Source: Liolophura sinensis (lineage: Eukaryota; Mollusca; Polyplacophora; Chitonida; Chitonidae). From it: a stretch of DNA of 64,000 nucleotides. The stretch covers positions 20,529,501-20,593,500 of the forward strand of contig NC_088303.1 in NCBI RefSeq assembly GCF_032854445.1. Direction: 5' to 3'. The translations under genes and the position numbers were made by a program. The notes under the pieces were generated by a model, which saw only the letters and a list, made by a program, of their open reading frames with translations, did no database searches and was not told the origin of the DNA. Of the stretch, positions 9,801-49,650 are shown one piece after another. The stretch's first letter is position 1; the number at the start of each line of letters is the position of its first letter.

Positions 9801-12800
9801 AAAGTATGTCCAATAAAAATAAGGCGACTGTAAAAAATTGTGCTTGGGTTTCACAGCTTTAGTAGGGAATAAGACAGATAAGAAAATGCGTACTCTGGAA
9901 GAGATAATCTTCTGTGTTTTGATCCGGGTTGTCAGCTGCTCCGACTACGTCAAAGGGTGATCTTCCTGCTAGCATCTCAAACATCAACACTCCAAGAGCC
10001 CACCAGTCTACACTAAAGTCTGTAACGCAAAAATGACATCTGTATTTGTTGCCAACCAACAGGGAAAGACAAATATATATATATATATAAACTTATTCAC
10101 CTAAACAAGAGTGGCCAGCATTACAGTAGGATAATACCTTCCCAAGTACAATTGGAAAATAAGCCGTCATGATGTGGACTTGAACTCAATGCGATTGCAT
10201 TGCTGAGAGGCTCCTGAACCATTGCACTGCATTGGTCTTACATATAAAGGAAATACTGGGGTTGAATTTGAAAACTTTTATGCTTCCAGAGCAATCCATG
10301 TTTTGTGCTGTGTTGGAGGAGCACCATATACAGTGATTCCATATACAGTGATTCCAAGACCATGTACATGCTGAACACCGCTGTGCAGTGCCTTTTCGCA
10401 GTTTAAGAAATACTTCAAGCTAAAGCAAATTACTTAAAATGTTCATATATAGCTGTATGCATAACTGTTGTGCAGGAATTTAATTTTAGGCCTTATTTGA
10501 GACACCATGAGCCCATAAATATGTGTAATACAAAATCTAAATGGTACTGGAAAACTGATCACTTTTACAAGTACGAAACAAATATGGAAACCTTTCCTAC
10601 CATAATCTTCTCCACGAAGCATCTCTGGGGCGATATAATTAGGTGTCCCACAAAATGTGTTGGTTGTGTCACCAGGCCAAAGGCCCTCCTACAAACATTC
10701 CAACAGTCTCAATCATTACAATAATGATACATTATTACACATGTGTTTTACCACTGCAACATATATGCCCATGCTTCAGCTTTTATCTTTCTTGGCCACA
10801 TGCTTATCTTGTTTCCAAAAGTACATTTTACAGCTATTAGACTGCAATACACCTGAAAAAAAAATGGTCAAGTACGCAACATTGACTTCTGAAGTACCAA
10901 TGTCCATAAACAAGACACCTGATTGTTGCTCTATCAAAAGGGTGCTGTTTACTGGTATATGTCGCTACAGTACTATATCCATACCTTACACATGCCGTAG
11001 TCTGTCAGCTTGATATGTCCCTCAGAGTCCAGAAGCACATTGTCCAGTTTCAGATCTCTATACACGATTCCTACAGGCAAAGAATACATACAGTAGATTA
11101 CCTCACATTTCAAGGAACTTTCCACAGACATTTTAACAGATGGAGAACTATCACGTGAAGTTATATGTGTGGTGGTATGTGTACTGCAAAACTACTGCAG
11201 GATTTTTTCCCAACTTAATACACCAGACACTATAGGTGATTTACTGAACATACACATAAATCAAAAGGATGAGACTGGATTGAAGCATGTCCTTGTTCAG
11301 GTCAGCTGTAATGCGGAAAATTAAGACTTTTTATTCTTTTCACTGTTTCACACACAAACTGTGATGCCTCGATTCATAAACAGATGTGTAACAAAACAAA
11401 GTTTAAAGCTCTTTTCGAAAGAGATACAGCATCTTGACAATACCAAGCACACCTGTGATTGTAGGTGCACTAGTATTTAAGTATTTGAATGGTGTTTTAC
11501 GCCGTACTCAAGAATATTTCACTTATACGACGGCGGTCAGCATTAAGGTGGGAGGAAACTGGGCAGAGTCCAGAAAAAACCCACGACCATCCGCAGGTTG
11601 CTGGCAGACCTTCCCACGTACTGCTGGAAAGATAGCCAGCATGAGCTGGACTTGAACTCACAGCGACCGCACTGGTGAGAGGCTCCTGGGTCATTGGGTG
11701 TACTAGTAAAATGAGGGAGTACCTCTCTCATGAAGATAGTTAAGAGCTAGTGAGATTTCTGCGGCATAGAAGCGTGCGTGATCCTCTGGAAGGCGGCGCT
11801 GTCTCTGCATGTGGAACATCAGATCTCCTCCATTCACAAACTCTATCACAAAGAACAACCTGTAACAAAAATGCTGTTCGATAAAACGCTGTACAACATC
11901 AGATTCGCAAACTCTCTCACAAAGAAGAACCTGTAATAAAAATGCTGTTCGATAAAACACTGTACAACATCAGATTCGCAAACCCTCTCACAAAGAAGAA
12001 CCTGTAATAAAAAGTACCCTAAATGACCATAAATTTCGTACATGACTAACTTGCTCATTTTTTTTCTGATTTGATAGTCCTATTGATTTTAGAAAGGTGT
12101 TTTGAGGTTTGATTTGAACATGGGATGATATTCTACTGGAAAATTGTAAGTTTCAGTACCAACCATAAATTTTGTGAGATTTATTTGCCTCTAAAAATGC
12201 ACTTTTGAGGATGAACTTTTAGGTCAAATAGGGTATGTTAGATAAAAGTCAAATCTCCTCCACCCAAAAACTCAATCACAAAGAGCAACCTGTAACCAAA
12301 AGTGTGTTCGATAAGACACCATGGAATATCAGATCTCCTCCATTCACAAACTCTATCACAAAAAGCAACCTGTAACCAAAAGTGTGTTCATTAAGACACC
12401 ATGGAATATCAGATCTCCTACATTCACAAACTCTATCACAAAGGACAACCTGTGACTCAGCCACACTCAATAAGATACCATACCACTGGCACATCTTATT
12501 CTCAATCAGTGACAACCCAAAAGTTCTGGGAAAATATTGTAATGGAAACAAATAAAAACAAAGTAATTTTGGAAAGTAAACTATCTGTATACAGTAGAGA
12601 ACTAACTGGACAAAGGTGACAGCAGCTTTATACGTTAGCATAACTACGCTCATGTACATACCTGCTTGGAGACTGGAAACAAGAGTGAAGGCCCACGAGG
12701 AATGGGTAATTAGAGGCAGTCTCAAACACATGCTTCTCCGTCTGCACCCAGTCTATATCCTGTAAACAAACTTTGCTGTAATCTGCCGCTTGCCATTATG

Positions 12801-48500: not shown

Positions 48501-49650
48501 CTCCAGCATATGGCAGTTATGAGGTCTGCCCTTTGTCCGTGTGTTTTGTCAGATGTTCCAGTGTATGGCAGTTATCAGGTCTGTCCTGTGTGTTTTGTCA
48601 GATGTTCCAGTGTATGGTAGTGTTCAGGTCTGCCCTGTGTCTGTGTCTTTTGTCAGTTTCTTCCAGCATATGGCAGTTATCAGGTCTGTCCTGTGCCTGT
48701 GTCTTTTGTCAGATGGTCCAGCATATGGCAGTTATCAAGTCTGTTTTGTGTTTTTTGTCAGATGTACAAGTGTATGGCAGTTATCAGGAAGACAGAATGT
48801 AGCCAAATTCCATGATACTGCTGAGAACATTGTCAATGTTCACATGGGGGTGATTCGCCTGACTGAGTACCGCACAGACATCGTTATCACCTTTAACGAC
48901 CCTGTGCTGATCAGGTAAATTACATTAGGATTTAGTACTACAGGAGACTATACTGTAGGAGTCAACTGGGCAGTGCAAACAAGGTAAAAAATGCACTACA
49001 AACTGCACGGCTGTATCAAAAGGACTCTTATTGTAGACTTACCTGAAGTTTTCATTCATTAACACAAGATGCAAGAGATCCACTCTCTGAATAAAATCCG
49101 ATCTGCACCAGGAGTTTAAAATTGGCTGGTCGACCTGGTATTCATGTACTGTAACTGATTGGGACATCTTGTCATGGTACTAAAGTGTTCAGAAGTAGAA
49201 TATTGAATTTTAAACAGAAAATAAGTTTATTTACATACATATGCTGAAACTGGGAAGAGCCTCCAAGTCTGTTGCCAGGCTGAGACTAGGTGGTCCATTG
49301 ATTTATGCATTTATTTGATAGGTGTTTAACGCCGTACTGAAAAATATTTCAGTAGTATTATAGTGGGATGAAACGAGGCAGAGCCAACTGCGGGTTGTTG
49401 GCAGATATTCCCAGCAGCAGATATTCCCAGCAAATATTCCTGGCAGATATTCCGTGAAAGTACATGAAGAACAGTGTTAACATGTCACGTTTTAGAGAAT
49501 TCCTTGAAATGTGTTTTATATGTGTGTTTCAGTCCTGAGAGCAGTAGCTATGCACCAATACCAACCTCAGCAGGCCCCTGGCAGGTGGAAGACTTCCATA
49601 AAGCTGTCACCTCATTACAATTGCTGGATCCAGGAATATTCAGTGATTGA
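45532..49650 (+). CDS. RANGRF: Ran guanine nucleotide release factor (MOG1), 5 exons
   Basis: Small Mog1/PsbP-fold protein that binds Ran and promotes guanine nucleotide release; in vertebrates it also aids sodium channel trafficking. Exons: 45532-45605, 46077-46190, 47190-47288, 48762-48914, 49533-49650. The sum is 558 nt, 185 aa, essentially the human length. Landmarks: an N-terminal [19 protein letters not shown], the signature [54 protein letters not shown] and a C-terminal LLDPGIFSD. The ATG lies two bases after an acceptor (TTTTTTTCAG|A), so a 5' UTR exon lies upstream; a consensus donor (GAGACAG|GTAACG) near 44811 is a candidate. The gene is head-to-head with PINK1. Intron 3 contains two minisatellites, the second built from the exon 4 acceptor. 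Confidence 0.95.
47399..47828. repeat. Roughly 30-bp minisatellite in RANGRF intron 3
   Basis: Diverged repeats of a unit like GACATGGTGTCAGGATAATG followed by TGACTG recur more than ten times. It is unrelated to the exon-derived array that begins about 100 bp downstream. Confidence 0.85.
47918..48761 (+). repeat. Minisatellite made of RANGRF intron-3 end plus exon-4 start, about 16 decoy copies
   Basis: Units of mostly 49-57 bp (one shorter) have the form TCTTTTGTCAG followed by ATGTTCCAGCGTATGGCAGT and TATCAGGTCTGCCCTGTGTC. The genuine exon 4 at 48762 starts with ATGTACAAGTGTATGGCAGT and TATCAGGAAGACAG after TTTTTTGTCAG. So each unit carries an acceptor and about 27 nt of exon start. The exon is the last unit. 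Individual units vary more than in the CAPZB array, suggesting greater age. Confidence 0.95.
49301..49412 (-). mobile_element. SINE family A fragment
   Basis: Tail and part of the body: TTTATTTGATAGGTGTTTAA, CGCCGTACTGAAAAATATTT, GAAACGAGGCAGAGCC. It lies in RANGRF intron 4. Confidence 0.7.

What the first reader, a model, noticed from the sequence alone, without database searches (positions are those of the whole stretch)
11723..48914. Recurrent exon-start/3' splice-site minisatellites in three neighbouring genes
Five separate places show copies of an exon start lying upstream of the intact exon: aPKC exon at 11859, aPKC PB1 exon at 18246, CAPZB exon 2 (single ghost), CAPZB exon 5, and RANGRF exon 4. 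In the three clearest arrays the unit spans the acceptor: about 27-48 nt of exon plus 28-45 nt of intron end. The intact exon is always the 3'-most copy. Unrelated genes on both strands share the pattern, so it looks like a general process in this genome rather than one accident. A simple model is recurrent tandem duplication at acceptors, tolerated only when the coding remainder stays attached to the last copy. From memory, boundary-spanning minisatellites ('mirages') were reported at the amphioxus Adh locus; I cannot verify that here.
Basis: partly seen in the sequence, partly recalled or inferred. Interest (0 to 1): 0.92.

Follow-up and report, generated by a model that had tools for sequence, protein, structure and literature searches.

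The report
Splice-junction minisatellites in a chiton
In a chiton (a marine mollusc), short stretches that straddle the boundary between exon and intron have been copied many times in tandem, leaving rows of decoy splice sites beside real exons; the only earlier reports we found are from lancelets, and here it occurs at both ends of exons and in several unrelated genes.

Summary
The core observation is real. Tandem arrays whose unit crosses a 3' splice site lie upstream of aPKC exon 11859-11723(-), CAPZB exon 28893-29034(+) and RANGRF exon 48762-48914(+). Two of the five places differ: aPKC PB1 exon 18246 has decayed copies, one of most of the exon, and the CAPZB exon 2 'ghost' is one decayed whole-exon copy without splice sites.

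The genome is the chiton Liolophura japonica. Three myosin genes on other contigs, fetched before their arrays were seen, gave four more junction arrays, three at 5' splice sites; a ZC3HAV1/PARP-like gene gave another. Tally: 4 acceptors, 4 donors (5:4 with PB1). The acceptor-only claim fails; that the intact exon is the end copy is geometric.

This matches the 'mirages' of amphioxus genes (PMC3087553), here in a protostome. Ghosts keep their splice dinucleotide in 105 of 127 cases; all 97 ghost sites tested would give a premature stop. Preference for junctions is unproven: seed counts suggest it (P=0.012), per-position coverage does not. Best reading: neutral minisatellite turnover across junctions, tolerated because splicing uses the exon-proximal site (no RNA examined).

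The parts
11723..11859 (-). aPKC kinase-domain exon, intact junction copy (acceptor before 11859)
   Evidence: Pfam Pkinase 9.6e-08; tblastn to recalled PRKCI 5e-23
11832..12013 (-). inner aPKC junction array, 71-bp unit x2.6; overlaps the first 28 nt of the exon
12249..12453 (-). outer aPKC junction array, 80-bp unit x2.6 (48 nt exon + 32 nt intron); 3 of 3 copies keep AG
18157..18246 (-). aPKC PB1 exon
   Evidence: tblastn to recalled PRKCI 5e-10; splice sites; no Pfam hit at 0.01 on its own
18472..18543 (-). decayed copy of 72 of the 90 nt of the PB1 exon, no acceptor
   Evidence: local score 84, null maximum 28 of 300
18425..18451 (-). short acceptor-bearing copy of the PB1 exon start (ghost AG at 18440-18441)
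   Evidence: read by eye; not scored
25062..25138 (+). single decayed copy of CAPZB exon 2, splice sites lost
25855..25940 (+). CAPZB exon 2, intact
   Evidence: tblastn to recalled CAPZB 5e-13; splice sites
27456..28932 (+). CAPZB acceptor array, 85-bp unit, 16 ghosts besides the intact copy, 14 with AG
28893..29034 (+). CAPZB exon with the intact junction copy
   Evidence: Pfam F_actin_cap_B 4.2e-19
47451..47824 (+). 27-bp minisatellite in the same RANGRF intron, not overlapping an exon
47918..48788 (+). RANGRF acceptor array, 55-bp unit (27 nt exon + 28 nt intron), 13 ghosts at 60% identity or more, 9 with AG
48762..48914 (+). RANGRF (Mog1) exon with the intact junction copy
   Evidence: Pfam Mog1 2.8e-10; PDB 5yfg 2.6e-08

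Best explanation
These are minisatellites founded by local tandem duplication of a 31-85 bp segment that happened to include a splice junction, then grown and homogenised by unequal exchange. They lie on the intron side because the rest of the exon exists once. The copy still joined to the exon body is the functional one: 3'-most in acceptor arrays, 5'-most in donor arrays. The ghost copies are non-coding decoys that drift with the array. They are tolerated because the splicing machinery uses the exon-proximal site (exon definition), with failures giving messages with premature stops, open to nonsense-mediated decay. Shown: anatomy, both polarities, higher-order structure, retained decoy signals, a stop from every tested decoy. 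Inferred: founding by slippage or microhomology, neutrality, correct splicing, NMD.
For: Eight arrays registered copy by copy: CAPZB, RANGRF, aPKC and myosin-C2 (acceptor); myosin-C11 exon 5, myosin-C11 exon 9, myosin-C1 exon 8 and ZC3HAV1/PARP-like (donor). Block spacings show whole-unit exchange: CAPZB 83,83,85,85 occurs twice; the PARP-like array repeats 39,39,51. The intact CAPZB junction is closest to the copy four units away (0.96 at -340; next 0.93 at -85; best of 16), so the real junction took part. Splice dinucleotides kept in 105 of 127 ghosts against about 97 expected from identity alone: no purge. Of 97 ghost sites tested in seven arrays, 97 would give a premature stop. The intact myosin-C2 acceptor shares 81 nt of intron and 9 nt of exon exactly with a ghost, so nearby sequence up to there cannot pick the right site. 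No place elsewhere in the genome was found for the CAPZB and RANGRF units. Searching each junction on the wrong (exon) side finds only duplicated myosin exons at score 110 or more (3 of 73, 2 of 71).
Against: No RNA was examined, so accurate splicing is assumed. Founding microhomology is visible by eye only at CAPZB (8 of 9 nt around GGGAC) and is weak or absent in the other six arrays printed (myosin-C11 exon 9 was not printed). If initiation is uniform, 3-4 of 10 myosin arrays at junctions is more than the 0.53 expected (P=0.012 for 3, 0.0011 for 4), a hint of preference that this explanation lacks.
Confidence: 0.68

Rival explanations
1. Junction-biased initiation: splice junctions are hotspots for tandem duplication, for example through transcription-coupled breaks, R-loops or short homology between splice motifs and exon sequence.
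For: In the three myosin genes 3 of 10 array families overlap a junction (4 with myosin-C11 exon 9, linked to its junction by homology) against 0.53 expected; P=0.012 or 0.0011.
Against: Small sample. By position the junctions are not enriched: 9 of 73 acceptors and 5 of 71 donors have a local copy at score 110 or more (3 and 2 of these are duplicated myosin exons, one more acceptor is low-complexity) against 16-17% of 3172 intron positions (a conservative control, since every array copy counts).
Confidence: 0.2
2. Self-healing AG|GT ladder: where the junction reads AG|GT, every copy is both an acceptor and a donor in register, so splicing between any two copies removes whole units and leaves the correct sequence. 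Mis-splicing to a ghost can then be corrected by a second splice, as at dual-specific or recursive splice sites.
For: 4 of 8 arrays have AG|GT in register, in 77 of 82 ghosts. 3 of 4 acceptor mirages start with GT against 12 of 69 other acceptors (Fisher P=0.026, chosen after the fact). AGGT dual-specific sites and an excess of introns equal to whole tandem units are published for human genes (PMC10809524, abstract and passages).
Against: The other four arrays lack it (1 of 45 ghosts), so it cannot be the general reason for tolerance. GTATTT, GTTGTT and GTTTGA look like weak 5' sites (judgement, not scored). No RNA evidence.
Confidence: 0.08
3. The arrays have a regulatory function, for example as decoys that tune splicing or transcript level.
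For: Ghost splice dinucleotides are kept slightly above identity-based expectation (105 against about 97 of 127); every tested ghost use gives a stop (97 of 97), as a poison-exon design would.
Against: The excess is small and homogenisation explains it. Arrays differ in unit, length and side between genes; the PINK1-like gene in the same window has no TRF array in 5.6 kb of introns.
Confidence: 0.04
4. Assembly artefact.
For: The myosin-C2 array contains a 200-N gap.
Against: HiFi reads of mean 8,347 bp exceed the seven other junction arrays described here (about 1.6 kb at most); copies differ from each other; exon and intron parts read through into unique sequence. Reads themselves were not seen.
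Confidence: 0.02

Closest known systems
'Mirages' of amphioxus: Adh3 and globins BflGb6 and BflGb9 (PMC3087553, abstract and passages); TnC and PGBD5 (PMC3902484, one passage)
   Same: Minisatellite-like tandem copies of an intron-exon boundary, at 5' or 3' boundaries, many copies keeping AG or GT; concerted evolution within arrays.
   Different: Mollusc, not cephalochordate; up to 50 ghosts besides the intact copy; several in genes fetched without regard to arrays. Normal splicing and length instability, reported in amphioxus, were not tested here.
Dual-specific splice sites in tandem repeats, UBC and VCX3A (PMC10809524, abstract and passages)
   Same: AGGT in the units of a tandem array, in 4 of 8 arrays here.
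   Different: Here the units hold intron sequence and the ghosts are not coding; use as both site types was not tested.
Intron gain by tandem duplication of AG/GT proto-splice sites (Rogers model as cited in PMC3087553; intron formation by internal tandem repeats in human paralogs, PMC2812944, passages)
   Same: Local duplication involving splice signals.
   Different: The copies lengthen an intron from one end; no intron between two copies of the same exon segment is seen.
27-bp intron minisatellite of abalone TSSK1-like (PMC6905558, passages)
   Same: Polymorphic minisatellite in a mollusc intron.
   Different: The passages read place it inside an intron, with no mention of a junction.

Membership tests
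Mirage (boundary-spanning minisatellite) | Tandem unit contains contiguous intron and exon sequence across a real splice junction | tested here: met
   Eight arrays with 9-52 nt of exon and 18-44 nt of intron per unit
Mirage (boundary-spanning minisatellite) | Either exon boundary can be affected | tested here: met
   4 acceptor and 4 donor arrays, plus the degenerate PB1 acceptor
Mirage (boundary-spanning minisatellite) | Copies retain many but not all AG/GT signals | tested here: met
   105 of 127 ghosts
Mirage (boundary-spanning minisatellite) | Array turnover / concerted evolution | tested here: met
   336-bp and 129-bp higher-order repeats in CAPZB and the PARP-like gene; no tree was made
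Mirage (boundary-spanning minisatellite) | Regular mRNA splicing is undisturbed | not testable with these tools
   No RNA data held
Mirage (boundary-spanning minisatellite) | Length polymorphism or somatic instability | not tested
   One haplotype assembly only
Intron gain by tandem genomic duplication | New intron lies between two duplicated exon segments | tested here: not met
   In the four acceptor arrays the preceding exon encodes a different protein segment and its codons join correctly to the intact exon; donor arrays not tested this way
Dual-specific / recursive splice sites | AG|GT in register in the copies | tested here: inconclusive
   4 of 8 arrays, 77 of 82 ghosts in those; 1 of 45 in the other four
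Dual-specific / recursive splice sites | Same site used as 5' and 3' splice site in RNA | not testable with these tools
   No RNA data held
Mobile element | Unit dispersed in the genome | tested here: not met
   Three of the eight arrays searched: CAPZB 17 of 17 and RANGRF 7 of 7 matches local; aPKC 2 of 3 local, the third in a PKC-like exon. The search skips very common words and scores only its best candidates

The most novel reading that the evidence does not exclude
In this chiton a sizeable share of splice junctions (7 of 144 scored here; 4 of 78 in the genes fetched without regard to arrays) sits at the end of an array of its own copies because junctions are preferred sites of tandem duplication, and where the junction reads AG|GT the array is an in-register ladder on which mis-splicing heals itself by removing whole units. 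Splice junctions would then be both a source of minisatellites and the reason they are harmless.
Probability: 0.1. Interest if true: 0.88.

Novelty: new member of a known kind. Interest (0 to 1): 0.6.

Why it matters
If mirages are common in a mollusc as well as in lancelets, they are not a chordate oddity but a recurrent way for introns to grow from their ends and for decoy splice sites to arise. The arrays are natural experiments on splice-site choice: the real myosin-C2 acceptor is identical to a ghost over 81 nt of intron and 9 nt of exon, so the exon body or the next 5' site must tell them apart. RNA data for this species already exist, so the question is directly testable.

Tried and rejected
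Acceptor-only process: rejected after donor arrays appeared in the first genes sampled. Dispersed repeat as source of the CAPZB and RANGRF units: not supported. Coding use of the ghosts: the 74 ghost acceptors and 23 ghost donors tested all lead to a stop. Ghost sites purged by selection: not seen. Units avoiding multiples of three: eight of nine tested periods are not multiples, the PARP-like one is, so dropped. Position-coverage test for junction enrichment: negative. Rfam scan of the window: 0 matches. SINE sequence in papers: 0 papers. Third aPKC match on C7 (L003): a PKC-like exon whose start lies within two codons of the aPKC one (my reading), with only three short low-scoring TRF rows (score 51 or less) in its 3 kb. 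Haemocyanin loci L004 and L005: no TRF rows. Score-104 match at the myosin-C2 exon 2 donor and score-115 match at the CAPZB acceptor at 27224: judged intron-only or low-complexity on inspection and not counted. Duplicated myosin-C1 exons (3 acceptors, 2 donors over threshold) were set aside as whole-exon duplicates. Before the enrichment count I dropped TRF rows with period under 19 or score under 100 and the 20-bp array before the first C2 exon, and merged arrays with the same unit. Exon ends in the 75-exon set were chosen by a script from rough splice-site tables; only those of the dissected arrays were checked by eye. In the aPKC count the copy at -142 (seen) was below the 60% cut-off and is not among the 4 ghosts. 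Eight of the 50 myosin-C2 ghosts lie beyond the N gap, so their spacing and frame are nominal.
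Full report
WHAT WAS CLAIMED.

THE GENOME. The window is G000:C9:20529501-20593500 of an assembly of 609,464,459 bases in 632 contigs; C9 is 37,343,639 bases long. Eight matches to the molluscan haemocyanin domain PF14830 within 12 kb (0 of 14 control genomes) mark a mollusc. The published Liolophura japonica assembly has 632 scaffolds, N50 37,343,639 and longest scaffold 96,433,062 (the length of C1), from PacBio HiFi reads of mean 8,347 bp at 14X plus Omni-C (PMC11068029, passages read). 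Its printed total, 609,495,693, is 31 kb more than held here. I take it to be that chiton.

THE OBSERVATION. TRF finds the three arrays at the stated places. Copy-by-copy registration to the real junction gives CAPZB 41 nt exon + 44 nt intron, 16 ghosts, mean identity 0.88; RANGRF 27+28, 13 ghosts, 0.69; aPKC 48+32, 4 ghosts, 0.75. Exon identities: F_actin_cap_B 4.2e-19, Mog1 2.8e-10, Pkinase 9.6e-08, Ran guanine nucleotide release factor 5yfg 2.6e-08. Codons join correctly across the junctions (MYFE, ECTS, RLFF). The other two places hold older copies of most of an exon: PB1 (score 84 against a maximum of 28 of 300 unrelated segments) and CAPZB exon 2 (82 against 31). The CAPZB exon 2 copy has lost both splice signals.

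ARE THEY MOBILE? Whole-genome DNA search finds the CAPZB unit only in its own array (17 of 17 matches) and the RANGRF unit likewise (7 of 7). aPKC gives two local matches and one in a PKC-like exon on C7. The other five arrays were not searched. The tool skips very common words and scores only its best candidates, so these are not proofs of rarity.

A WIDER SAMPLE. I searched for myosin head exons (81 matches) and fetched three genes for their exon density, before seeing any array: C1:26.64 Mb, C2:5.38 Mb, C11:2.68 Mb (43.8 kb). They contain: myosin-C2 exon 2, acceptor array of 32 bp with 50 ghosts (9 nt exon + 23 nt intron); myosin-C11 exon 5, donor array of 82 bp with 12 ghosts (52+30); myosin-C1 exon 8, donor array of 31 bp with 5 ghosts (13+18); myosin-C11 exon 9, 32-bp donor copies (9+23, 15 ghosts, 6 with GT) scattered in patches through its intron. 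In the 200 kb next to the window, by looking at arrays beside open frames, I found a ZC3HAV1/PARP-like exon (WWE 8.5e-04, just under the Pfam cut-off; ZAP 7kzh 8e-06) with a donor array of 12 ghosts. Tally: 4 acceptor and 4 donor arrays, 5 to 4 with the degenerate PB1 case. In donor arrays the intact junction is the 5'-most copy. So the acceptor rule is a small-sample effect, and the end position of the intact copy is geometry.

IS THE JUNCTION PREFERRED? Two tests disagree. (a) Position scan of 73 acceptors and 71 donors in eight gene models: 9 and 5 have a local junction-spanning copy at score 110 or more (3 and 2 of these are duplicated myosin exons; one more acceptor is low-complexity), against 16-17% of 3172 intron positions. 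No enrichment; the control counts every array copy and is therefore conservative. Searching each junction on the other side gives 3 and 2, all duplicated myosin exons. (b) Seed placement in the three myosin genes: 10 array families, 3 overlapping an exon junction (4 with myosin-C11 exon 9), 0.53 expected, P=0.012 (0.0011). The window itself was not used for (b), being the place where the pattern was noticed. I treat preference as open. In all 7 of 144 scored junctions have a dissected array (6 with the TRF array overlapping the exon, myosin-C11 exon 9 by homology), 4 of 78 in the myosin genes; the PARP-like gene was not in that set.

HOW THEY BEHAVE. Higher-order spacing (CAPZB 83,83,85,85 twice; PARP-like 39,39,51 repeated) shows exchange in whole-unit blocks. 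The intact CAPZB junction is nearest to the copy four units away (0.96), so the functional copy takes part in turnover. Ghosts keep their dinucleotide in 105 of 127 cases; about 97 would be expected from identity alone: decoys are not purged. Using any of 74 ghost AG or 23 ghost GT sites in seven arrays would give a premature stop, 97 of 97; 67 of 97 shift the frame (the PARP-like array was not included; for donors 90 nt of the next modelled exon were appended). The myosin-C2 acceptor shares 81 intron nt and 9 exon nt exactly with a ghost, and the myosin-C11 exon 5 donor 53 exon nt and 78 intron nt. Local signals cannot single out the real site; the natural inference is exon definition from the exon body and the opposite splice site. 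Founding breakpoints were printed for seven of the eight arrays (not myosin-C11 exon 9): only CAPZB shows clear short homology by eye.

AG|GT LADDERS. In CAPZB, aPKC, myosin-C2 and myosin-C11 exon 5 the copies carry AG|GT in register (77 of 82 ghosts); the other four arrays do not (1 of 45). Splicing between two such copies removes whole units. Human AGGT dual-specific sites and the excess of introns equal to whole tandem units are published (PMC10809524, abstract and passages). This could make half of the arrays self-correcting; it is untested and post hoc.

AGAINST THE LITERATURE. [quoted passage not shown] also PMC3902484, one passage). The features that could be tested here are met. The original Adh papers were not among the listings seen and were not read. 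I saw no report of mirages outside cephalochordates in the listings of searches (62 and 63 listed 12 of 32 and 10 of 126 papers; most listed papers were not opened) of an open-access library that lacks most subscription papers. Two mollusc papers opened by passage mention an intron minisatellite in abalone and intron microsatellites in cone snails, neither at a junction in the passages seen; a C. elegans paper links intron minisatellites to alternative splicing, with no junction-spanning unit in the passages seen.

VERDICT. A real, recurrent phenomenon; a known kind in a new phylum as far as these searches show; not acceptor-specific; genome-wide frequency, junction bias and function unproven.

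Noticed in passing
G000:C9:20496390-20500337 and 20514957-20518444 (L034-L036): Two long arrays of a 53-bp unit (159-bp higher-order repeat) in inverted orientation about 15 kb apart, enclosing ORFs that look LINE-like to me (no search run); the unit holds an acceptor-like TTTCTGCAG|GT motif.
   Followed up: no
myosin-C1, C1:26640073-26643386 (L038): Three near-identical copies of the exon encoding LEDQI(I/V)QANPVLEAYGNAKT, and two of the GESGAGKT exon: look like mutually exclusive exons of a muscle myosin.
   Followed up: partly
C2:5376945-5377144 (L040): 200-N assembly gap inside the 32-bp myosin-C2 acceptor array; its true length is unknown.
   Followed up: no
window 1-472 and C9:20527674-20529972: 94-bp minisatellite of 24.5 copies that runs across the left edge of the window.
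   Followed up: no
window 8001-8746: 64-bp array in an aPKC intron whose unit contains a tRNA box-A-like motif (recalled); may derive from a SINE head.
   Followed up: no
C9:20334982-20346817 (L018-L019): Dense long ORFs on both strands; looks like a viral or large mobile element. Only listed as open frames, not identified.
   Followed up: no
window 61584-62537 (-): 317-aa open frame that looks like a Tc1/mariner transposase (label recalled).
   Followed up: no
window 37260-44338 (-): PINK1-like gene (label recalled) with eight exon anchors and no TRF array of period 15 or more and score 50 or more in 5.6 kb of introns.
   Followed up: partly
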